Assembly (NCBI GenBank): GCA_013298505.1
Contig: JAAFHY010000009.1
Span: 1-64,000 of the forward strand
Length of the DNA stretch: 64,000 bases
Direction of reading: 5' to 3'
DNA from: Cytophagales bacterium
GTDB taxonomy: Bacteria > Bacteroidota > Bacteroidia > Cytophagales > Cyclobacteriaceae
A program made the translations under genes and the position numbers. The notes beneath the pieces were generated by a model that saw only the letters and a program-made list of their open reading frames with translations, was not told where the DNA came from and did not search any database. Shown piece after piece: positions 51,118 to 64,000 of the stretch. Position 1 is the stretch's first letter. Each line of letters begins with the position of its first letter.

Positions 51118-51240
51118 TTGATTCGTTGATTTGTTAATTCGTTGATTTGCTGATTCGTTGATTTGCTGATTCGTTGATTCGATAATTGCCAATGCAATCC
51201 AAAATCCCCAACGAATCAACTCATCACCGAATTAGCGAAT
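51118..51240. repeat. Tandem/inverted low-complexity repeat in atpA-atpG spacer
   Basis: TTCGTTGATTTG(C/T)TGATTCGTTGATTTGCTGATTCGTTGATTCG then ccaacgaatcaactcatcaccgaattagcgaattaa. Confidence 0.75.
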
Positions 51241-52814
51241 TAATATTTACCAGCAAGTTCCAACGCTACCTTCTTTACCGTATCTGCATCAGCATCTTCA
51301 AACTTACCAGCACGGAAATTTTCTAACACCGATTTGTATTGAGCTTTCAACAAGCCAATAAATTCAATTTCAAATTCTTTGATCTTATTCACAGGTACTT
51401 TATCTGTATAGCCTTTTGTAGAAGCTAATATAATCGCTACTTGCTCTTCAACTCGCACGGGTTGATATTGTGGCTGCTTCAACACTTCTACGTTTCTGCG
51501 TCCACGCTCAATCACCAATTTCGTAGCGGCATCCAGGTCAGAGCCAAATTTCGCGAAAGCTTCCAATTCGCGGAATTGTGCCTGATCCAACTTTAATGTA
51601 CCCGCTACTTTCTTCATCGGTTTAATCTGTGCCGAACCACCTACACGCGATACCGAAATACCAACGTTAATGGCAGGGCGTATACCCGAGTTGAATAAGT
51701 TTGTCTCCAAGAAAATCTGTCCATCCGTAATCGAGATTACGTTGGTTGGAATGTAAGCAGACACATCATTCGCTTGTGTCTCAATGATCGGAAGAGCGGT
51801 TAATGAACCTCCACCTTTCACTAAATGCTTTATAGATGCAGGAAGGTCATTCATTCTCGCTGCGATCTCATCGTTGTTGATCACCTTCGCAGCTCTTTCA
51901 AGCAAGCGTGAGTGCAAATAGAATACGTCACCAGGATATGCCTCGCGGCCCGGAGGTCTTCTCAACAACAATGACACTTCGCGGTAAGCCACAGCTTGCT
52001 TTGAAAGGTCATCGTAAATTACCAATGCCGGACGACCGGTGTCGCGGAAGAACTCACCAATCGATGCACCGGTGAAGGGCGCAAAGAATTGCATCGGAGC
52101 AGGATCAGCTGCAGATGCAGAAACAATAACTGTATAAGGCATCGCACCTGCTTTTTCAAGCGTAGCTGCTACACCGGCAACGGTAGAAGCCTTTTGGCCG
52201 ATGGCCACATAAATACAATATACCGGCTTGCCTTGCTCGTAAAATTCTTTTTGGTTGATGATCGTATCGATCGCCACAGCGGTTTTACCAGTTTGACGGT
52301 CGCCAATGATCAACTCGCGTTGTCCGCGACCGATCGGAATCATTGCATCAATCGCTTTTATACCGGTTTGAAGCGGCTCGTTTACCGGCTGACGGAAGAT
52401 TACGCCCGGAGCTTTGCGCTCCAATGGCATATCATACAAGTCTCCGGTAATAGGTCCTTTACCATCAATCGGTGATGCCAGTGTATCTACCACGCGGCCC
52501 AACAAACCATCGCCTACATTTACAGAGGCAATTTTTCCGGTGCGTTTTACGGTATCACCTTCTTTAATTTCTTTAGACTCACCCAAAAGTACTGCACCCA
52601 CGTTGTCTTCTTCGAGGTTAAGTACCATGGCGCGCAGGCCATTTTCAAATTGAATCAACTCACCCGCCTGTGCCTGTGTAAGGCCATAGATACGGGCAAC
52701 GCCATCACCAACGGTTAAAACGGTACCCACCTCTTCTAACTCTGCATCGGTGCGTGATTGCGACAACTGCTCTCGCAATATTGATGAAATTTCTTCGGGT
52801 CTGATTTCTGCCAT
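51240..52814 (-). CDS. atpA: F1 ATP synthase alpha subunit
   Basis: [76 protein letters not shown]. Confidence 0.98.
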
Positions 52815-52898
52815 GATTATTTAGTCTTTAGTTCTTTGTTAGTCAGTCTTTATTTTGTCTTGCCTTCCCTATCGTGTGGAGAGGGCTAGGGTGAGGTA

Positions 52899-53459
52899 TT
52901 AAAATTCTTTTATGTAGGGGTTCTCGCTAAACTTTGTTTTCAAGGCTTTTAACTTACTCTTGATGGAGGCATCGATTTGCTTATCGCCCACGTGCAATAC
53001 AAAACCACCAATCAAATCGGGATTGATTTTTTGTTGCAATTCAATTTCGGCTTTTCCGCTAATCTTTTTAACCAATGCTTCTAGTTCGGCTTTCATCTTG
53101 CCATCTAAAGCAAACGTAGTTGCCACCGAAGCTTTCTGAATACCCTTGTTTACGTTGTACGCGTTGTGAAACTCAACTGCAATGGCTGGCAACAAGGGCT
53201 CGCGATTTTTTCTTGTAAGCATCGAAATGATAGCCATTGTCAACTTGTTTACTTTGCCTTTGAAGATGGCTTCTAAGATTGCCAACTTTTTATCGTGGCG
53301 GATAACAGGGCTCTTCAACATGCGCGTAAAATCTTGGTTGGAGGCGCACACGCTGGCAAACAACTGCATATCGGCATGAACCAACTCAAGTGCGCCTTGC
53401 TCTTCGGCAAGACCCAACAACGATTTTACGTACCGTGATGCTACTCGTGAATCGGCCAT
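52899..53459 (-). CDS. atpH: F1 ATP synthase delta subunit
   Basis: VASRYVKSLLGLAEEQG...; C-terminal NPDLIGGFVLHVGDKQIDASIKSKLKALK. Confidence 0.95.
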   Translation of the reverse strand: MADSRVASRYVKSLLGLAEEQGALELVHADMQLFASVCASNQDFTRMLKSPVIRHDKKLAILEAIFKGKVNKLTMAIISMLTRKNREPLLPAIAVEFHNAYNVNKGIQKASVATTFALDGKMKAELEALVKKISGKAEIELQQKINPDLIGGFVLHVGDKQIDASIKSKLKALKTKFSENPYIKEF

Positions 53460-53462
53460 GAT

Positions 53463-53957
53463 TTAGTTCAACTTAAGGTCTTTAATGTACGTATCGATCA
53501 AGTCTTTTTGCTGCTTATCATCCGACAAATTTTTCTTGATCAACTTTTCTGAAATCTCCAATGAAAATAACGCCACTTGTGCTTTTACATCGCGTAAAGC
53601 AGCTTGCTTTTCAGTATGGATGATGGCTTTGGCATCTTCGATAATGCGATCTGCATTTTTCTTTGCATTAGTTTGAGCCTCATCGTGTAGGCGGTTAGCT
53701 GCCTCACGTGCATCGCGCAAAATACGATCGCGCTCTTCGCGAGACGCCTTCAATAATTTTTCATTGTCAGACTTCAATGATGCCATTTCTATTTTTGCTT
53801 TCTCGGCAGCATCCAAAGCGTTTTGAATAGACTCTTCACGCTCTTTTAGCGATGCCAAAATAGGCTTCCAGGCAAATGCTTTCAATAAAAAGAATAAGCC
53901 TACGAAGATGATGAATTGCCAAACGATGAGGCCAGTGCCGGGTGATAATAAATCCAT
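53463..53957 (-). CDS. atpF: F0 ATP synthase subunit b
   Basis: GTGLIVWQFIIFVGLFFLLKAFAWKPILASLKEREESIQNALDAAEKAK. Confidence 0.95.
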   Translation of the reverse strand: MDLLSPGTGLIVWQFIIFVGLFFLLKAFAWKPILASLKEREESIQNALDAAEKAKIEMASLKSDNEKLLKASREERDRILRDAREAANRLHDEAQTNAKKNADRIIEDAKAIIHTEKQAALRDVKAQVALFSLEISEKLIKKNLSDDKQQKDLIDTYIKDLKLN

Positions 53958-54060
53958 ATACTATCTATTTAAAAGAATCCAATCTCAATTTTTTGTTTCT
54001 CTTTTTTGTAAACAGAAGAACTCGCTAGGCCCATTGCCAAAGCAAGTTCTTCTGAATTTC

Positions 54061-54312
<252 letters not shown>

Positions 54313-54353
54313 TTATAAATTTAAGTGAAACAAAAAATTCAACTCAACCCATC

Positions 54354-55382
54354 TTAATGATGGTCATCGGCAGTGGCCATGCCAATGTATAATGCGGTAA
54401 ACAACGTAAATACATACGCCTGAATACCTGCCACCAACAACTCAATCAGATTAATAAACATGACCGCTATCGAAACGCCAACGCCCACCACGTAGCTCTG
54501 AAAAATAAACGTGAGGCAAATCAAGCTCAACAACACAATATGGCCCGCGGTAATGGCCACGAACAAACGGATGGTTAACGAAAACGGTTTTGTAAAAATA
54601 CCAATGATCTCAACTGGCAAAATGATGGGGCGCAAGGCCAATGGCACACCCGGTGTCCAGAAGATATGCGACCAATAGTTTTTGTTGCCACTAAAATTGG
54701 TAATAAGAAATGTAAGAACAGCTAACACCAGCGTTACCGCGATGTTTCCGGTAAGGTTACCTGAGCCGGGGAGTAGACCTAACAAATTTCCGAAGAGAAT
54801 AAAGAAAAATAGCGTGAGCAAGTAGGGCAAAAACTTTTCGTAGTGATGGCCAATGTTGGGCTTCACTATTTCATCGCGCACAAAAATGATGATGGGTTCG
54901 ATAAACGATTGAATGCCTTTGGGCGCTTTGCCTGTTCTGTTTTTGGCCGATCTGGCGACAGCCGTAAGGATCAAGAACAAAAGCGTAGCATTAATCAACA
55001 GCATGGCCACGTTTTTGGTGATTGAAAGGTCAAAAACTGATTTTCCGCTTTCAGTTAAATAAATATGGTTGTGCTCTAATTTATAACCGTTGTATTCTAC
55101 GGGATTGTGGTTTTCATCAAAAAAGTTAGAAGACAAGAAAACATCCATTCCCTTTTCGGCTGAGTAAACGATGATGGGCAAAGGCAAAACAAGGTGATCT
55201 GAAAAATGCCATTGGTGGTCGTCTACCACGTGGTGAAGGATCACTTCATTGGGATCAAACTTTTTGGGCTCACCGCCTTCGGTTTCAGAACCCGAGGCAA
55301 ACGAAGGGCTTAAAAAGCTGGCAATAGCAACAAAAAAGAGAGTTAAAAAGGCAGTTTTTTGTATCAAAAAGGGCTTTTTCAT
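54354..55382 (-). CDS. atpB: F0 ATP synthase subunit a
   Basis: GNLLGLLPGSGNLTGNIAVTLVLA...KPFSLTIRLFVAITAGHIVLLSL...ELLVAGIQAYVFTLFTALYIGMA. Confidence 0.97.
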   Translation of the reverse strand: MKKPFLIQKTAFLTLFFVAIASFLSPSFASGSETEGGEPKKFDPNEVILHHVVDDHQWHFSDHLVLPLPIIVYSAEKGMDVFLSSNFFDENHNPVEYNGYKLEHNHIYLTESGKSVFDLSITKNVAMLLINATLLFLILTAVARSAKNRTGKAPKGIQSFIEPIIIFVRDEIVKPNIGHHYEKFLPYLLTLFFFILFGNLLGLLPGSGNLTGNIAVTLVLAVLTFLITNFSGNKNYWSHIFWTPGVPLALRPIILPVEIIGIFTKPFSLTIRLFVAITAGHIVLLSLICLTFIFQSYVVGVGVSIAVMFINLIELLVAGIQAYVFTLFTALYIGMATADDHH

Positions 55383-55628: not shown

Positions 55629-56858
55629 TTAAAAAACTTTATCCAGCCTTCTCAATTTATTTGCCTTCCAACTCGTAATCCCCACCACACCAAGCGTCAT
55701 CAGCCCACCAAAAATTACCGATGGAACTACACCCATCAGCTTTGCGGCCACACCCGACTCGAAGGAGCCAATCTCATTAGAAGAGCCAATGAAAATACTA
55801 TTCACTGCCGAAACCCTTCCCTTCATGTTTTCGGGAGTTAAGGTGTGAATAAGCGTGCTGCGAACAATTACGCTCACGCAATCGAACATGCCGCTTACAA
55901 TTAATAATGCCATTGACAACCAGAAGATTTTTGAAACGCCAAAGCCGATCATGCACAAGCCAAACCCTGCCACGCACCACAGCAAAATTTTTCCAATGTT
56001 TTTCTTGATCGGGTTGCGGGTGATATAGACCGCTGTAATTACGGCACCAATGCCTTGGGCCGATCGTAAAAAGCCCAAGCCAACGGCACCTACGTTCAAA
56101 ATATCATCAGCAAAAATGGGAAGCAGTGCCACCGCCCCACCAAACAATACGGCAAAGAGATCTAGAGAAATAGCCCCTAGAATAACTTGGTTGGTAAAAA
56201 CAAATTTTATCCCAGCCTTAATTTTATCAAAAATGCCTTGTTCATCGCTGATCGGTGGAAGTTTTTTATTTGGTATCAGTACAATACAAGTCAGCCCCGC
56301 TACAACCAGTGCAACGTCTACCGAGTAAGCTGCTGTGATACCAAAGAAGCCATATACCAAGCCGCCAATAATGGGGCCGCCCACGGCTGCGCCTTCCCAA
56401 AGGGTGCTATTCCAAACAATGGCATTTTGATACAGCGCACGATCCACTAACTGCGGCATAAAAGAGAAGCTAGCTGGCGATAGAAATCCGCGTGCTATGC
56501 CACTCACAAAAATCACTAGGTAAATTGGCAAGGCTCCGTTTTGTAAAATAAAACTTCCCAGATCGGTAGTAAAATAAAGTAGCGATACAGAACAAGCCAA
56601 CAGTATGCTTACACAGACTAAAATGATTTTTTTTCTTTCAACCGTATCGGCCAAATGCCCTGCGTACAATGAAACGGTTATGGCAGGAATTGCTTCTGCC
56701 AATCCGATTAACCCTAGCGAGAGCGCATCTTTTGTTATTTCATAAATCTGCCAACCTACGATTACGGCTTGTACCGTTATTGCGATGGTAATCATCAATC
56801 TGCCAAAAACAAAAAATCTAAAATCTCTTACCCGAAGGGCTGCGTAGGGATCGTTCAT
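55629..56858 (-). CDS. MFS transporter (EntS-like MFS_3)
   Basis: AALRVRDFRFFVFGRLMITIAITVQAVIVGWQIYEITKDALSLGLIGLAEAIPAI...GHLADTVERKKI. Confidence 0.9.
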   Translation of the reverse strand: MNDPYAALRVRDFRFFVFGRLMITIAITVQAVIVGWQIYEITKDALSLGLIGLAEAIPAITVSLYAGHLADTVERKKIILVCVSILLACSVSLLYFTTDLGSFILQNGALPIYLVIFVSGIARGFLSPASFSFMPQLVDRALYQNAIVWNSTLWEGAAVGGPIIGGLVYGFFGITAAYSVDVALVVAGLTCIVLIPNKKLPPISDEQGIFDKIKAGIKFVFTNQVILGAISLDLFAVLFGGAVALLPIFADDILNVGAVGLGFLRSAQGIGAVITAVYITRNPIKKNIGKILLWCVAGFGLCMIGFGVSKIFWLSMALLIVSGMFDCVSVIVRSTLIHTLTPENMKGRVSAVNSIFIGSSNEIGSFESGVAAKLMGVVPSVIFGGLMTLGVVGITSWKANKLRRLDKVF

Positions 56859-56911
56859 AAATTTTGGGTCAACCTTGGAGTTTTTATGTAGGCTCGCAAA
56901 GATTTGTTTTT

Positions 56912-57496
56912 TTAAGATCCGCTCAATAGAGAATCAATTGCTTCGATGGATTTTTTCCTTCGTGCTTCTCTATCGCCAGTTACTTCAACAACCAGTGTAT
57001 TGGTTTGAGCCAGTTCTTTTTTATAGATGTCCCAAAAGTATTCTCGTTTATCGGGGTGCTCTCGCTGTGGATCATTTTCCCACGGAATGTCAATGTTGGT
57101 AAGTAAAAACAAATCGTAGATTCTGCTCTGCATCTTCTCGATGATTTCTTCATCGCAGTTGCCAAACTTATGCTCGCTCCAAACTTTAATCACCAGTAAG
57201 TTTGTATCGCAAATCAATATTCTGTTTGCCCCTGTTTGCCATTCATCTTCCATTCGCAGTTGACCGTGTGCTATTTTGGTGAGGTCGGCTTGCGTATACG
57301 GCTTACCTAATTTATTCAGGTACGCCCGCGCGTACTCTTCTACCCAATTGGTTTTGTAGTGGCTTGCCAAAAATTTAGAAAGATCTGTTTTGCCCGTGCA
57401 CTCAGGGCCGATCACACAAATTCTTTTAACCACTTTGGCTGCTTGTTGCGAAAACGACATATTCTTTTTCTTTCCAAAATAGGTAATTAAGCGCAT
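56912..57496 (-). CDS. NadR ribosylnicotinamide-kinase-like ATPase
   Basis: KRICVIGPECTGKTDLSKFLASHYKTNWVEEYARAYL...ILICDTNLLVIKVWSE...YDLFLLTNIDIPWENDPQREHPDKREYFWDIYKKEL. Confidence 0.9.
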   Translation of the reverse strand: MRLITYFGKKKNMSFSQQAAKVVKRICVIGPECTGKTDLSKFLASHYKTNWVEEYARAYLNKLGKPYTQADLTKIAHGQLRMEDEWQTGANRILICDTNLLVIKVWSEHKFGNCDEEIIEKMQSRIYDLFLLTNIDIPWENDPQREHPDKREYFWDIYKKELAQTNTLVVEVTGDREARRKKSIEAIDSLLSGS

Positions 57497-57515
57497 CTCT
57501 AAAAATTGGCAAAAC

Positions 57516-57543
57516 GGTTTCCAACCTTGGCAAGGTTGAAACC
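57516..57543. repeat. Intergenic palindrome GGTTTCCAACCTTGGCAAGGTTGAAACC
   Basis: Near-perfect 28-bp palindrome. Confidence 0.75.
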
Positions 57544-57611
57544 CTCAACCAGAAAGATTATAGCTTTATAGATGCCCAAAATTTATTTATCTTTCGAGTT
57601 GAATACTACTT

Positions 57612-59069
57612 GTGAAGCGGAGAAAAGCATTAGCGCATCTTGGTTTTGGCTTATCGGCTGGCATGATTATGCCAAGCATGCTGGCATCATGCCAAAAAGA
57701 TGATGCTGGCCCCGAAGTACCATATGATGGTAACGTTATTATAATTGGAGCGGGTGCTGCCGGACTTTATGCTGCAGATATTTTACGTATAAAGGGAATT
57801 AACGTAACCGTTTTAGAGGCAGCCTCACAACCAGGGGGCAGGGTGCGATCGCTTCGCAATCAAACCGATGTACAGTATCAAACGTTCAGCAACGCTTCGC
57901 AAGCCGATTTCCCTATCGAATTGGGAGCTGAAGTTATTTACGGCTCTGATTCTTCGTGGGGCAAAATAATTAGCGACTTGGGGATTACCACCAAAGAAAT
58001 CGATCCCGCTGCCACAAGATATATTTTAGATAATGTAGCTAAGAAGGACGCTGAATGGACTATCCTTGCCGACACAGACTTTAATGCAGTAAAAGCATTT
58101 GTTGCTGGCCTACCCGATAACACATCAGGAGCCTCTATCAAAAATGCGGCAGGTGTTTCAACTCGTGCGCAAGCATTGCTCAACTCGCAAGCAGGAAATT
58201 TCTATGGCTCTACAGCCGATCAAATCGGCACCAATGGCATTGCCGAGTCGCTCAAAAAAATAACGCATAACAACAAGCAACTGACTACGTTTTCAAATCC
58301 GTGGCAAGATGTACTCATCTCCCGATTCAACGGTATTCTTCCTTTCGTAAAGTTTAATACTGTTGTGAAGCGAATTGATTGGGGAACAAATCTCATAACC
58401 ATTACCGATGCGGGAGGCAAAACCTACACAGCCACTAAAGTTTTGATAACGGTGCCGCTGAGCATTTTAAAAAATGGTGCTATTACTTTTAATCCTGCTT
58501 TGCCCAGCACAACCACAAGCGCGGTGGCGAAATTTGGGATGGATGCTGCAGTGCGCATGGTGCTAGATTTTAAAAGCAATTTTTGGGGATTAGACAGCAG
58601 CTTTATTTGGGGAGGCTCTACCTCGCCACAATACTTTAATTCAGGTGTAAACAGAAGCAAGTATTTTCGTACGATGTCGCTCACGATTTATGGCGATAAG
58701 GCACAGCAACTTTCGGCCTTATCCGACTATGATAAAACGCTTACCGTTTTGGCAGAGTTAGACGCGGTGTACAATGGCGATGGCACTAAATACATCAGAC
58801 GCGATTTAGATAATAGCGATAATACCACCAATATAGTACAGTTCGTAAAAGATTGGACCATAGACGAATTCACCAAAGGAGGTTTTGCCTATCCGCTGGT
58901 GGGCACTACACTTGAAGATAGAAAAGGTCTTGCCGCCCCGCTTTCAAACAAAATCTATTTTGCCGGAGAAGCTACCGATTTTAGTGGCGATGCGGGTACC
59001 GTTAGCGGTGCATTAAACTCTTCGGTGCGCGTGGTGGAAGAAATTGTTAAGTCTATTCTACAGCCGTAG
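57612..59069 (+). CDS. Flavin amine oxidase (FAD-dependent), exported/lipoprotein-like
   Basis: VIIIGAGAAGLYAADILRIKGINVTVLEAASQPGGRVRSL; KIYFAGEATDFSGDAGTVSGAL; GTG start with signal MLASCQ. Confidence 0.93.
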   Translation: MKRRKALAHLGFGLSAGMIMPSMLASCQKDDAGPEVPYDGNVIIIGAGAAGLYAADILRIKGINVTVLEAASQPGGRVRSLRNQTDVQYQTFSNASQADFPIELGAEVIYGSDSSWGKIISDLGITTKEIDPAATRYILDNVAKKDAEWTILADTDFNAVKAFVAGLPDNTSGASIKNAAGVSTRAQALLNSQAGNFYGSTADQIGTNGIAESLKKITHNNKQLTTFSNPWQDVLISRFNGILPFVKFNTVVKRIDWGTNLITITDAGGKTYTATKVLITVPLSILKNGAITFNPALPSTTTSAVAKFGMDAAVRMVLDFKSNFWGLDSSFIWGGSTSPQYFNSGVNRSKYFRTMSLTIYGDKAQQLSALSDYDKTLTVLAELDAVYNGDGTKYIRRDLDNSDNTTNIVQFVKDWTIDEFTKGGFAYPLVGTTLEDRKGLAAPLSNKIYFAGEATDFSGDAGTVSGALNSSVRVVEEIVKSILQP

Positions 59070-59070
59070 G

Positions 59071-60531
59071 CTACGGTTTGGCGTAATTCAAGTTCCTCAC
59101 GCCAGCAGCCCAGTAAATGGTTGCTTTCATCTTTTCGTATTCGGCTTTAAGCTTTAGCAATTTCGATTGAGCTTGAATTAGTTTTTCTTGCTGAACATTA
59201 ATCTTGAACAAATCACTTTCGCCATTCTCCAGATTTATCAATTCTGCTCGTAGCAAACGGGTATAGTTTTCGGCCACATCAGTTTGCTGTGTAAGAATCT
59301 GATTGGTATTTACGATTTGATTAAAAACCACATTGATTTGATTAACGATTTCGCGCTCTGCTTGCGATTGCTCCCACTGAGTACTTTGAATTTTGATTTT
59401 TGTGAGCGCCAACTTCGAGCGTTCTTTTCGCAAAAGAATAGGCATTGAAAAATCCAATCCAAATTTATAGTCCTTCGCTACCGAAATAGAATTGAACGAT
59501 CCATTGGGCATGAGTGGTTGATTGATAAAATTGTAATTCAAATCCAATCGTGGTTTTAAATATTCAATGGCCAGTTTTCGATCGATTTCGAGTTGGTCGA
59601 TTTTTGTTCGCAACTTCACCAACTCTGGGTGATTTTGCTTAGCCATTAAAACAAGATCGTTGAGTGTTTGGGTAGCGAGCAACTGAGCATCGAAGGGTAA
59701 CAGGACAGGTGCTACATCAGCCGAAAGTTGTACAGGGTAGCCGGCATTGTCCCACAGGTAATTTGAAATGACAATGCCCGTGTTCAGAAATTCTAAATAC
59801 GACTCTTGTCGTTCTACCAACCGTTGCTGTAGGGTAATCTTTGCTTGAATGGTATCAATAGCCGATGCTTCGCCTAAGGTGGCATCTAATTTTACACGCC
59901 TAAATATTTCGGTTGCTATAACGGTGCTTCTGCTTAACAAGCGGTAATTGTAAAAAGCAAAATACCATTGCCAATAATCTTTAGCTGCCGCAAGCAAAAT
60001 TTTATTCACCAATTTAATTTGCTCTGCTTCGGCCATTTTGGTAAACAACTTTGCTTGTTTTAGTGCAGCTCGTCTGTCATCGGTAAATAATCCGCGCCCA
60101 ACTGGCAACGAAATACCTGTTGTTAATTGGCTGTTATCAGATGCTCCACCCACAATATCTTCGGGGTCGAGAAATAAACCTGTGTTTCGTTCAAACCCAA
60201 TTTTTGGATCGAGTGGAAACCATGTTGGAATACTTAACGAGGTTTTAAATTTGTTATAATACTCTTTGTCTTTAAACTCTTTGATGTTCAAATCGGCTTG
60301 CACTTTCGGGTCGAACGCACCACGTGCCATGCGTATTTCTTGACGAGCGATTTCATTGAGCAAATAAGCTTGCTTTACTACCGGATGATACTCCAGCATG
60401 GCTGCATACATCCCGTCAATCGAAAATGGTTTGATCGAATCGGGCAATACGAAAATCGAATCAAGCGATACTTGCGCGCGCCCTGCAAATGAAATGATCA
60501 ACAGCAAACCAAACAGAATTTTCTTAGCCAT
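59071..60531 (-). CDS. TolC-family outer membrane efflux protein
   Basis: Signal peptide; QEIRMARGAFDPKVQADLNIK...; paired long helical regions; C-terminal AQSKLLKLKAEYEKMKATIYWAAG. Confidence 0.9.
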   Translation of the reverse strand: MAKKILFGLLLIISFAGRAQVSLDSIFVLPDSIKPFSIDGMYAAMLEYHPVVKQAYLLNEIARQEIRMARGAFDPKVQADLNIKEFKDKEYYNKFKTSLSIPTWFPLDPKIGFERNTGLFLDPEDIVGGASDNSQLTTGISLPVGRGLFTDDRRAALKQAKLFTKMAEAEQIKLVNKILLAAAKDYWQWYFAFYNYRLLSRSTVIATEIFRRVKLDATLGEASAIDTIQAKITLQQRLVERQESYLEFLNTGIVISNYLWDNAGYPVQLSADVAPVLLPFDAQLLATQTLNDLVLMAKQNHPELVKLRTKIDQLEIDRKLAIEYLKPRLDLNYNFINQPLMPNGSFNSISVAKDYKFGLDFSMPILLRKERSKLALTKIKIQSTQWEQSQAEREIVNQINVVFNQIVNTNQILTQQTDVAENYTRLLRAELINLENGESDLFKINVQQEKLIQAQSKLLKLKAEYEKMKATIYWAAGVRNLNYAKP

Positions 60532-60534
60532 CAG

Positions 60535-61824
60535 TTATTCTGTTTCTTTCACTTCTTTACTTTTCGTTTTTGGGTCTTCGTCTGCTGGCTCTTGATATAA
60601 GCTCGGAGGGAACCCGTTCAACTGTCGCCATAGTTCGTACCAAACGCTTACATCATCTAGCATTACCCAACCTTTAATGCCAGAGCCCATGCGCACTTGC
60701 TTGGGCCAGGCTGTATCTTTCGCATCGGGTATTACGAGTATTCTAAATTCTCCGGGCTTGGTATTTACATAATCGATTACTTCTACCGTTCCACCAAATG
60801 TACCCACCGAAATACTTGGCCAACCGCTAAATTGAAGAGCTGGGAACCCATCAAACTCAATACGCACTCTACGGCCTTTGCTTATCAACGGAACATCCAT
60901 AGCTCTAACGTGCATCTCAACGGCTACATCGAGCGACTGCGGCATAATCGTGCAAACAGCGTCTCCTTCTTTGATGGTTTCGCCAATACCTGCTTGTGTA
61001 GCTTTTACTACATAGCCCGCTTGTGGAGCAAGGATAAAATATTGCTGGCTGCGAATTTCCATGTTCGAAAGTTCGTTGCGCTGTTTGAACAAATCTGCTT
61101 GCGTATCGGCAATATCGGCTAGCGTATTGTTCCATTCTGATTCTGCCTTATTGATTTTATCTAAATACTCTGCCTGCACCCGCTCGATTTCAATTTTGGC
61201 GTTTACAAAATCTGCTTCGCTACCTTGGTATTTATATTCAATGTCTTGAAACTTAGTAAGTGTAATATTGCCAGCTTCAAATAATTTCTTGCTTCGCTCA
61301 TATTGATTTTTAAAGTTATTGAACCGCACTGTTTCTGCCTCTAGTTTCGCTTTCGATTGGTTCACTTTCGTTCGCATTCCATCTTCAAGCGCACTGATTT
61401 GACGTTGCAGCGACTTCGCTTTCATGTCTTTTGATTTTATGCTCTGCTCTTTAGCTGATATGACTTGCTGCAACCGCTCCAAAAACTTTGGGTCGAAGTA
61501 TTTTTCTTTTACCTCGCTAATGATTGCGATGGTATCTGACTTTGCCACAAACTGACCTTCTTTTATTTTCCACACCTGTATGCGGCCCGCAATAGTTGTT
61601 TCGATAGTCTGTGGCCGGTTGCTTGGCGATAGAGCTGTTACTTTTCCTTTGCCACGAATGTTCTGTTGCCATGGCAAAAACAAAATCAAAAAGAAAAGAA
61701 ATAGCATCCCCAACAGGAACTTAGCCAAAATCTTACCAGCCAGAGGGGTCTCTAGCGATCGCAAGGAATACAATTTTTCTTGCGGCATTTTTTCTTTAAC
61801 CGAATGAGATGAAATATTGAGCAT
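60535..61824 (-). CDS. HlyD-family periplasmic adaptor
   Basis: IRGKGKVTALSPSNRPQTIETTIAGRIQVWKIKEGQFVAKSDTIAIISE; PQAGYVVKATQAGIGETIKEGDAVCTIMP. Confidence 0.93.
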   Translation of the reverse strand: MLNISSHSVKEKMPQEKLYSLRSLETPLAGKILAKFLLGMLFLFFLILFLPWQQNIRGKGKVTALSPSNRPQTIETTIAGRIQVWKIKEGQFVAKSDTIAIISEVKEKYFDPKFLERLQQVISAKEQSIKSKDMKAKSLQRQISALEDGMRTKVNQSKAKLEAETVRFNNFKNQYERSKKLFEAGNITLTKFQDIEYKYQGSEADFVNAKIEIERVQAEYLDKINKAESEWNNTLADIADTQADLFKQRNELSNMEIRSQQYFILAPQAGYVVKATQAGIGETIKEGDAVCTIMPQSLDVAVEMHVRAMDVPLISKGRRVRIEFDGFPALQFSGWPSISVGTFGGTVEVIDYVNTKPGEFRILVIPDAKDTAWPKQVRMGSGIKGWVMLDDVSVWYELWRQLNGFPPSLYQEPADEDPKTKSKEVKETE

Positions 61825-61829
61825 GCGGC

Positions 61830-63989
61830 TTAATGTATTATTCCTTTTAATTGTTCATTCTTTACTAATTCTTCCATTGAGCCACTGGCAATCACTTGGC
61901 CCTTATCTAAAACCACTACTCGATCGCACGAGCTCATTACCAATGGATCGTTCGATACAAAAATGATGGTTCGTTCCGATTTAGTGTTATTTAATTTCGA
62001 CAACATTTCTATTTTTTCATTCTTTGTTAAGACTTGGAAGAAATCATTTAGAATCAATAAACGAGGATTTTCGGCCAAACATCTTGCTAATATAAGTTTA
62101 CAGCAAAATGAGTTTGATAGCCCAATGCCTCCGCTAAGCACATGTGTATTTAACCCCGCTGGCATCGCGTTTACGTGATCTAAAATGCCAACTTGTTGCA
62201 ACGCATTAATGGCATCGTCTACCGTTTCAGATGGCTTACCCACAGTAATATTTTCGAGAATGGTGCCATCAAACAAATCTTCTCTCGATATATTTTTTGC
62301 CACGTAATCGCGCAGGTGCGTTAAATCTAAATCGCGGAGTGAAAAATGATTGATAGTAGCTATGCCTTCATAATTGGAATATAACCCTGCTATAATTTTT
62401 ACTAAAGTAGATTTCCCCGAATCGGCAGAGCCCGTTAAGCATACTTTTTCACCTTCGGCTACATCAAGATTTACTCCATTCAGTACGTAGTTATTGGTTT
62501 GATCGTATTTGTATTTCAGGTTTTTAAGCCGTACCGAAAAACCCGTATTATTTAATTTCGGAAAGTCAAACCCTCCTGTGCGTTCGATTGGTAAGTCGGT
62601 AACGTGCGCTACTTTATCTACAGCTGTCAATAAATCGTACACCACATCCATGTACATGATTATTTTTTCAACCGCATTTAGAATCAAAATAATAACGATT
62701 TCGGAAGCGACTAATTGCCCCAGCGTAATTTGTCTATCTACCACTAAGAGGGTACCCATAATGAGCAACCCACCAATGATTAATGCTTTGAATAAAACGA
62801 TGCAAGCATACTGAGTAACCAATACATTGAAATGTATTTTTCTATTCTTTAAATAGCTGTTTACGTTATAGTCGGTTTTGCGAATGGGCAACTCGGTGTT
62901 ACCTGCCAGTTTAAACGAATGGATCGAGCGTGCTAGCTCTTCGAGCCACTGAGCCACTTTGTATTTGTATTTTGACTCTTGAATGGATGAGTTTAACCCG
63001 CGAGGCCCCGTATAGTAAAAAATTAGCACCAACGAGGTAAGCAATACCAAACCAAAGAATACAAAGAAGGGGTGATAGAGTGATATTAATAGCAATCCAA
63101 ACAAAATTTGAATAACCGATGAGGATAGATCGATCAAAAGTTTTGGCAATCCTTTTTGTATGGTCATTACATCAAAAAAGCGATTGATCAATTCGGGCGC
63201 ATAGTGTTTGTGTAGAGCCTCTAACCGAATGCGTGGAATTCTAAATGCAAACTCGAAGGCGGCTTTGGTAAAAATCCTTCGTTGCAAAAATTCGACTAAG
63301 CTAATTTGCACCATTTGAAGCGTACCGCTTAGCAGCACCCCTACAATTACCAGCGCAATCATTAAATAAACCGAACTGAAAACTACACCTCCCGAAATTA
63401 ATTCTACTGTTGTTTGTATCCCTAGCGGCACGATCAGGCTAATTAAACCAACTACAACCGCATAGAATAGAATATATAAGATTTCCTTTTTTTCAGTTTT
63501 CAAAAGTTGAAAAAGCCTACGTGCCGGACTAGGCTTTTCGCCTTCATCAGTAGGTATACTTACCGGGCTTTCGTACGAAAAGATGGCGAAGAAACTAATG
63601 TCACCAATCTCATTCTTCAGCAACATGCTCGCATTAAAATCAACCGTGGTTGTTCCGTCTTTCTTTAATTGGGTTACTTTTATTTTTCCTTTGTCAGGAA
63701 TAAGCAAAGCGGGGTACAGTTCTGAGGCTTCGGTTAAGAATATTAATACGGGCGTTGACTGCTCTGTAAAAAAATCAAGAAACGATTTTTCGTCTAGTTG
63801 ATTTTCCATCAGCAAAACCCTGATTTTATTTCCTGCCTCTGTTAGATCGCGCTTAAACTCCGATAGTTCATCTTCGGCATACAGCCGTTGGTTTGCCTCT
63901 ACATGGCGAAGGTCTTCTAAATTAAAATCATGTTTTAACGTGAACGAAATTTCGCGTAAGCACCGATGGATTTGATCGTTGGTAAGCAT
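61830..63989 (-). CDS. ABC exporter (TMD-NBD) with degenerate nucleotide-binding domain and non-peptidase N-terminal extension
   Basis: TM domain; Walker A GSADSGKST intact; LSGGIGLSNSF signature-like; Walker B-like LLILNDFF; H-loop position FVSNDP. Confidence 0.88.
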   Translation of the reverse strand: MLTNDQIHRCLREISFTLKHDFNLEDLRHVEANQRLYAEDELSEFKRDLTEAGNKIRVLLMENQLDEKSFLDFFTEQSTPVLIFLTEASELYPALLIPDKGKIKVTQLKKDGTTTVDFNASMLLKNEIGDISFFAIFSYESPVSIPTDEGEKPSPARRLFQLLKTEKKEILYILFYAVVVGLISLIVPLGIQTTVELISGGVVFSSVYLMIALVIVGVLLSGTLQMVQISLVEFLQRRIFTKAAFEFAFRIPRIRLEALHKHYAPELINRFFDVMTIQKGLPKLLIDLSSSVIQILFGLLLISLYHPFFVFFGLVLLTSLVLIFYYTGPRGLNSSIQESKYKYKVAQWLEELARSIHSFKLAGNTELPIRKTDYNVNSYLKNRKIHFNVLVTQYACIVLFKALIIGGLLIMGTLLVVDRQITLGQLVASEIVIILILNAVEKIIMYMDVVYDLLTAVDKVAHVTDLPIERTGGFDFPKLNNTGFSVRLKNLKYKYDQTNNYVLNGVNLDVAEGEKVCLTGSADSGKSTLVKIIAGLYSNYEGIATINHFSLRDLDLTHLRDYVAKNISREDLFDGTILENITVGKPSETVDDAINALQQVGILDHVNAMPAGLNTHVLSGGIGLSNSFCCKLILARCLAENPRLLILNDFFQVLTKNEKIEMLSKLNNTKSERTIIFVSNDPLVMSSCDRVVVLDKGQVIASGSMEELVKNEQLKGIIH

Positions 63990-64000
63990 ACTAAACCTTA

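What the first reader, a model, noticed from the sequence alone, without database searches (positions are those of the whole stretch)
61830..63989. TolC-HlyD-ABC exporter whose ABC ATPase is degenerate at nearly every catalytic motif except Walker A
Seen: Walker A GSADSGKST is intact (about 62401-62440). Walker B reads LLILND (about 62041-62070), so the Asp is replaced by Asn and the catalytic Glu by Asp. The H-loop reads FVSND (about 61941-61970), with no His. The expected Q-loop region reads NISREDLFDGTILENI, with no Gln. The signature is LSGGIG followed by a Cys-Cys insertion. The N-terminal extension of about 150 aa shows no C39 Cys/His peptidase motif. Established: canonical type I secretion ABC proteins need Walker B, the catalytic Glu and the H-loop for hydrolysis. 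Inference: a non-canonical exporter that binds but barely hydrolyses ATP, or pairs with another ABC half, kept in an intact operon with HlyD and TolC partners. This is my best candidate for an under-described system.
Basis: partly seen in the sequence, partly recalled or inferred. Interest (0 to 1): 0.72.

Follow-up and report, generated by a model that had tools for sequence, protein, structure and literature searches.

The report
Exporter operon with dismantled ATPase
A three-part bacterial export machine, found in about half of the sampled genomes of its class (Bacteroidia), has an ATP motor with almost every catalytic residue missing, and one branch has deleted the motor altogether while keeping the rest, so it probably moves its cargo with some other source of energy.

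Summary
LSGGIG is the stretch before the signature; the LSGGQ position reads LSNSF, with no insertion.

The degeneracy is neither a sequencing error nor private to this genome. Among 150 distinct NBD-bearing relatives, mostly Bacteroidota, 100 keep none of six canonical catalytic residues, 42 keep one and 8 keep two or three; nine control exporters keep five or six. Only Walker A survives (Lys 147/154). The gene sits beside HlyD and TolC in 107 of 116 testable loci, often with an upstream TetR, and 194 of 395 sampled genomes of the class carry the family.

Ten loci were read in full; one family of genomes holds about 52 such copies. HlyD follows at once, and 73 of 79 conserved TMD positions stay conserved. 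Half of the six lost lie in or next to coupling helix 2, which docks the NBD. No relocated family NBD was found.

Best reading: a tripartite ABC-type exporter that does not hydrolyse ATP itself, probably driven by an ion gradient (inferred). Closest precedents: engineered NBD-less LmrA-MD and MsbA-MD.

The parts
61830..63989 (-). ABC-exporter-type permease with degenerate NBD (719 aa): C39-like domain + 6-TM domain + pseudo-NBD
   Evidence: ORF; Pfam ABC_membrane and ABC_tran; AlphaFold pLDDT 92.6; Foldseek to PCAT1 and HlyB
63555..63989 (-). N-terminal C39-like domain (residues 1-145), no peptidase motif
   Evidence: full-length structural alignment to HlyB 8dck (721 columns); no C39 peptidase hit in Pfam; about 550-590 aa members start without this domain
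62580..63527 (-). transmembrane domain (residues 155-470), the most conserved part
62907..62924 (-). coupling helix 2 (residues 356-361); Phe359 invariant where an NBD is present and lost where it is absent
62700..62702 (-). Glu430 in TM6, family-specific conserved acidic residue, candidate ion-coupling site
   Evidence: 163/164 main members, 15/15 deep members, 0/9 canonical exporters
61833..62540 (-). pseudo-NBD (residues 484-719)
   Evidence: purifying selection in close pairs
62406..62432 (-). Walker A GSADSGKST (only canonical motif kept)
62271..62300 (-). Q-loop position AKNISREDLF, Gln replaced by Ser
62106..62120 (-). ABC signature position LSNSF (canonical LSGGQ)
62043..62060 (-). Walker B position LLILND (Asp->Asn, catalytic Glu->Asp)
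61944..61961 (-). H-loop position FVSNDP (His->Asn)
60535..61824 (-). HlyD-family periplasmic adaptor
   Evidence: adjacent in 108 of 116 loci with enough flank
59071..60531 (-). TolC-family outer-membrane channel
   Evidence: adjacent in 107 of 116 loci
63991..64000 (-). 3' end of an upstream TetR-family regulator gene (contig 63991-64665), 1 base before the ABC start codon; most of it lies beyond the window
   Evidence: TetR of this family near in 55 of 117 testable loci

Best explanation
The operon encodes a tripartite envelope exporter (HlyB-like permease, HlyD adaptor, TolC channel, often under a TetR regulator) whose permease does not use its own ATP hydrolysis. Shown from sequence: the NBD has lost essentially all catalytic residues across the family; Walker A alone is kept in most Bacteroidota; the domain is gone in one clade that keeps the rest of the operon and a conserved TMD. 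Inferred: in the window protein the folded pseudo-NBD, docked through the coupling helices, at most binds nucleotide and acts as a structural or gating element. Transport runs through the TMD dimer into HlyD-TolC and is probably powered by an ion gradient via conserved charged TMD residues (Glu430 is the leading candidate), as shown experimentally for engineered NBD-less LmrA and MsbA. TetR control suggests a small hydrophobic cargo (weak inference). Separate confidences: own ATP hydrolysis absent about 0.9; tripartite transport without its own ATPase about 0.7; ion-gradient drive about 0.4.
For: 150 distinct NBD-bearing members: 100 keep 0 of 6 catalytic residues, 42 keep 1, 7 keep 2, 1 keeps 3; nine control exporters keep 5-6. 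Walker A Gly/Gly/Lys kept in 152/152/147 of 154, but the Mg-binding Ser/Thr in only about 121. The TMD profile scores members >=290 bits and ordinary exporters <=28. Operon kept: HlyD and TolC adjacent in 107 of 116 loci; where not adjacent, a single 46-55% identical HlyD lies elsewhere in four same-order genomes. Ten NBD-less members of 332-352 aa, each followed at once by HlyD and TolC, form one clade with support 100, nested in NBD-bearing degenerate members; about 52 copies of this type in one family of genomes separate sharply by score, 527 bits and more against 400 and less. In the ten, 73 of 79 conserved TMD columns persist, and 3 of the 6 lost lie in or next to coupling helix 2. No relocated family NBD: best NBD hit <=176 bits, inside ordinary ~600 aa exporters, against 200-341 for the family NBD. 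Walker A also lost in Aureibacter and two sphingomonads. Deep relatives keep Walker B Asp, catalytic Glu and mostly the His, so the loss was stepwise. Precedent: LmrA-MD (PMC2704374, PMC6155054; TM6 Glu314 needed for proton coupling) and MsbA-MD (PMC4979069), without NBD, catalyse ion-coupled transport.
Against: No biochemical evidence of transport, of substrate or of ion coupling. A stand-alone ATPase acting in trans cannot be excluded from sequence. Near-invariant Walker A and purifying selection on the NBD (dN/dS about 0.03-0.06 in the two unsaturated pairs) show that the NBD still matters in most members, so full ATP-independence may hold only for the NBD-less clade. Correspondence of Glu430 with LmrA Glu314 was not tested, and its place in the membrane was inferred from helix limits only. 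The dimer was not modelled.
Confidence: 0.5

Rival explanations
1. The permease borrows an ATPase in trans: a generic ABC ATPase encoded elsewhere docks on the TMD, with the degenerate NBD reduced to a spacer and lost in one clade.
For: ABC ATPases are abundant in all these genomes; some ABC exporters use separate ATPase subunits (established knowledge).
Against: No specific ATPase gene accompanies the operon. Coupling helix 2, the docking element, stops being conserved exactly in the NBD-less clade. No family NBD relocated.
Confidence: 0.2
2. It is not a transporter in its own right but a scaffold or gate: the TMD anchors HlyD-TolC and the complex serves another pump or acts as a passive, regulated conduit.
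For: Loss of the motor with retention of all contact partners; in some genomes HlyD is encoded away from the permease.
Against: Conserved polar and charged residues along TM2, TM4, TM5 and TM6 are more than a scaffold would seem to need, though this is not decisive.
Confidence: 0.17
3. It is the degenerate half of a heterodimeric ABC exporter, pairing with a canonical half.
For: Heterodimeric exporters with one degenerate site are well known (TM287/288, TmrAB). L108 and L138 have a canonical NBD-bearing gene 142 and 66 bp upstream.
Against: Only about 2 of the loci surveyed have such a close neighbour (the three ~950 aa hits were UvrA). The signature is degenerate too, so both composite sites would be damaged. 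It cannot explain the NBD-less clade.
Confidence: 0.07
4. A remodelled active site still hydrolyses ATP slowly, using the family's own conserved residues (NIS.EDLF, NDFF, SNDP).
For: Walker A and these alternative residues are conserved in the window's own clade, though not across the whole family.
Against: The alternative residues fade beyond the Cytophagales-type members; the Mg-binding Ser/Thr is lost in about a fifth of members; the NBD is dispensable in one clade.
Confidence: 0.05
5. Sequencing error or decaying pseudogene.
For: The window genome is in 206 contigs; one genus member (L020/L042) has an in-frame stop.
Against: Same kind of substitutions in about 150 relatives including isolates; purifying selection.
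Confidence: 0.01

Closest known systems
Type 1 secretion ABC exporter HlyB with HlyD and TolC
   Same: Gene set, domain order (C39-like domain, 6-TM domain, NBD), full-length fold match to HlyB 8dck, TM-score 0.74
   Different: Catalytic residues lost; no RTX or other cargo gene identified beside it; NBD absent in one clade; far below NCBIfam cut-offs for LssB, HlyB and PrtD
LmrA-MD and MsbA-MD (engineered exporters lacking the NBD)
   Same: TMD of an ABC exporter with no NBD; carboxylates in the TMD; LmrA needs a TM6 Glu for proton coupling (PMC6155054, PMC2704374, PMC4979069)
   Different: Those are laboratory truncations of active ATPases; here the loss is natural and in a tripartite system. 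Residue equivalence not tested
Heterodimeric ABC exporters with a degenerate site (TM287/288, TmrAB)
   Same: Same exporter fold; non-canonical catalytic residues
   Different: There one subunit keeps a working site; here the whole family is degenerate at nearly all motifs with no partner gene
NHLM bacteriocin exporters (TIGR03796, TIGR03797)
   Same: Among the best NCBIfam similarities, 199.6 and 171.4 bits
   Different: Far below cut-offs of 853.3 and 709.4; no peptidase and no bacteriocin genes seen
CFTR and SUR
   Same: ABC proteins that do not pump by ATP hydrolysis
   Different: Still use ATP binding at NBDs; unrelated system (from general knowledge)

Membership tests
Type 1 secretion system (HlyB/HlyD/TolC type) | ABC exporter, HlyD adaptor and TolC channel encoded or acting together | tested here: met
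   (107 of 116 loci)
Type 1 secretion system (HlyB/HlyD/TolC type) | Catalytically competent NBD (Walker A, Walker B, Glu, LSGGQ, Q-loop, H-loop) | tested here: not met
Type 1 secretion system (HlyB/HlyD/TolC type) | Score above the curated subfamily cut-off (LssB, HlyB, PrtD) | tested here: not met
   190.3, 158.6, 130.1 bits against 693.1, 725.55, 510.15
Type 1 secretion system (HlyB/HlyD/TolC type) | Secreted protein cargo with C-terminal signal | not tested
   no conserved cargo gene appeared among clustered neighbours, but no targeted search was made
ABC exporter fold (type IV) | 6-TM domain of PF00664 and exporter fold | tested here: met
   NBD-less members also hit PF00664
Peptidase-containing ABC transporter (PCAT) | Active C39 peptidase (Cys, His) | tested here: not met
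   no C39 peptidase hit in Pfam; fold is C39-like
Heterodimeric ABC exporter with degenerate site | Partner half-exporter with intact catalytic site, usually in the same operon | tested here: not met
   close neighbour only in L108 and L138; a partner encoded far away was not tested
Secondary-active (ion-driven) transporter | Ion-gradient-driven transport | not testable with these tools
   only conserved TMD carboxylates found

The most novel reading that the evidence does not exclude
A natural, class-wide family of HlyB-like tripartite exporters has turned from ATP-driven into ion-gradient-driven transport, passing through a Walker-A-only stage to complete loss of the ATPase domain.
Probability: 0.35. 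Interest if true: 0.9.

Novelty: new variant of a known kind. Interest (0 to 1): 0.74.

Why it matters
ABC transporters are defined by their ATPase. A widespread family that keeps the permease, adaptor and channel while dismantling and finally deleting the ATPase gives natural material for the disputed question whether ABC exporter membrane domains can work as secondary transporters, so far studied with engineered truncations of LmrA and MsbA. It also warns that such genes are annotated as 'ABC transporter ATP-binding protein' although the residues for hydrolysis are absent.

Tried and rejected
Sequencing error or pseudogene: rejected, same kind of substitutions in about 150 relatives.

Canonical partner beside the gene: three ~950 aa NBD hits upstream of deep members were UvrA.

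NBD split off as a separate gene in the NBD-less clade: not found.

G566/L246 as an eleventh NBD-less member: cut off by a contig end, excluded.

dN/dS per domain: dS saturated in most pairs; only L014-L015 and L021-L022 usable.

Cargo from neighbours: no conserved gene except the TetR regulator and genus-level synteny (one search stopped with a script error after printing the neighbourhoods, and its gene choice for L196 is wrong, one search is right there).

Folding the NBD-less proteins: their loci are of a kind the structure tool does not accept, so not submitted.

Nine literature searches found no description of this family; the library holds open-licence papers only, so absence is weak evidence.

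Full report
What is there. The minus strand carries TetR (contig 63991-64665, just outside the window), an ABC-type permease (61830-63989), HlyD (60535-61824) and TolC (59071-60531), nearly without gaps. Pfam finds ABC_membrane and ABC_tran in the permease. NCBIfam similarity is broad but far below every curated cut-off in the table: NHLM ABC1 199.6 of 853.3, LssB 190.3 of 693.1.

Motifs. Alignment with ABCB1 and with canonical exporters from the same and related genomes gives: Walker A GSADSGKST intact; Q-loop Gln replaced by Ser; signature LSGGQ replaced by LSNSF; Walker B Asp replaced by Asn; catalytic Glu by Asp; H-loop His by Asn.

Family. A search of 59 relatives found full-length orthologues at 41-83% identity through the order. 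A profile search reached named genomes of Cyclobacteriaceae, Pontibacter, Hymenobacter, Salegentibacter, Saprospiraceae, Flavobacteriales and a Gemmatimonadetes MAG, and other classes of the phylum. With the NBD-less profile, 194 of 395 genomes of the class carry the family at E <= 1e-40. The TMD profile separates the family cleanly: members >=290 bits, ordinary exporters <=28 (the profile was built from the members, so their scores are high by construction, but the gap is wide).

Degree of degeneracy. In 150 distinct NBD-bearing members, 100 keep none of six canonical residues (Q-loop Gln, second signature Gly, signature Gln, Walker B Asp, catalytic Glu, His), 42 one, 7 two, 1 three; controls 5-6. 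Walker A Lys is kept in 147 of 154, the Mg-binding Ser/Thr in about 121. Fifteen deep members of the phylum keep Walker B Asp (15), Glu (14) and His (12), with degenerate Q-loop and signature; L213 and L214 read LSTGQ and keep 5 of 6. Aureibacter L260 and sphingomonads L261 and L262 have an NBD remnant without Walker A. This is a series from near-canonical to empty.

The NBD-less clade. Ten members of 332-352 aa end just after TM6 and are followed at once by HlyD, usually with a short overlap, and TolC. The five scanned hit PF00664 and no NBD. Trees of the TMD place the ten in one clade (support 100), inside NBD-bearing degenerate members, so one loss is enough. In the family of G223, about 52 copies score 527 bits and more with frames mostly of 337-409 aa (one 487), against 400 and less for NBD-bearing copies; these were not each read in full. 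Of 79 TMD columns conserved in NBD-bearing members, 73 stay conserved; the six lost include Arg354, Phe359 and Lys360, in or beside coupling helix 2 (residues 356-361 of the model). So the TMD is still under selection, and what was released is largely the NBD docking element. No relocated family NBD was found in these genomes.

Structure. AlphaFold of the window protein with 75 sequences: pLDDT 92.6, pTM 0.87. Best Foldseek matches are PCAT1, HlyB in the HlyB/D complex and TM287/288. The NBD fold is intact although its chemistry is not. NBD and TMD are under purifying selection in the two usable close pairs.

Operon. HlyD and TolC are adjacent in 107 of 116 loci with enough flank, HlyD alone in 1, neither in 8; a family TetR is near in 55 of 117. 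In four same-order genomes where neither is adjacent, one HlyD 46-55% identical to the window's lies elsewhere.

Mechanism. Shown: loss of catalytic residues across the family; loss of the NBD in a clade with the operon kept; continued selection on TMD and, elsewhere, on the NBD. Inferred: the permease does not hydrolyse ATP; nucleotide binding may gate or stabilise; transport probably uses an ion gradient. Conserved charged residues in the TMD that canonical exporters mostly lack include Glu233, Lys279, Lys342, His386, Glu430 and Lys442. LmrA and MsbA without NBD catalyse ion-coupled transport, LmrA with Glu314 of TM6 needed for proton coupling. Whether Glu430 matches Glu314 was not tested.

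Novelty. No description was found in nine searches of open papers. The parts are known kinds; the natural dismantling of the motor in a conserved tripartite exporter is, as far as could be checked, undescribed. It may work like a type 1 secretion system in architecture, but is not filed as a member, because a defining feature, the competent ATPase, was tested and not met.

Noticed in passing
L260 (Aureibacter tunicatorum plasmid pAT1), L261 and L262 (sphingomonad plasmids): Members with an NBD remnant in which even Walker A is gone; the sphingomonad operon in L261 follows a DUF2309 gene.
   Followed up: partly
G738, G856, G881: Genomes that carry both an NBD-less and an NBD-bearing copy of the family.
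   Followed up: no
L108 and L138: A canonical NBD-bearing gene (610 aa; 498 aa) 142 and 66 bp upstream of the degenerate permease: possible local partner in these two loci.
   Followed up: no
L042 (G015), L020: The permease gene is split by an in-frame TGA in one member of the same genus.
   Followed up: no
L156 (Gemmatimonadetes MAG): Walker A Lys replaced by Glu (GSGEST) while Q-loop Gln, Walker B Asp and H-loop His are kept, the reverse of the window pattern.
   Followed up: no
family alignment: Members of about 550-590 aa (Flavobacteriales, Saprospiria, Pontibacter) lack the N-terminal C39-like domain that the window protein has.
   Followed up: no
window 51240-55382: ATP synthase F1Fo genes on the minus strand in the same region, downstream of the exporter operon.
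   Followed up: no
L259 and three further Riemerella anatipestifer records: Records labelled plasmid of about 100 kb hold fabG, rsmI and murB beside the operon and may be chromosomal pieces.
   Followed up: no
window 55629-59069: An MFS transporter, an ATPase/kinase-like gene and a GTG-start oxidase-like gene (plus strand) keep the same order beside the operon in many genomes of the genus (clusters c4, c5, c7).
   Followed up: partly
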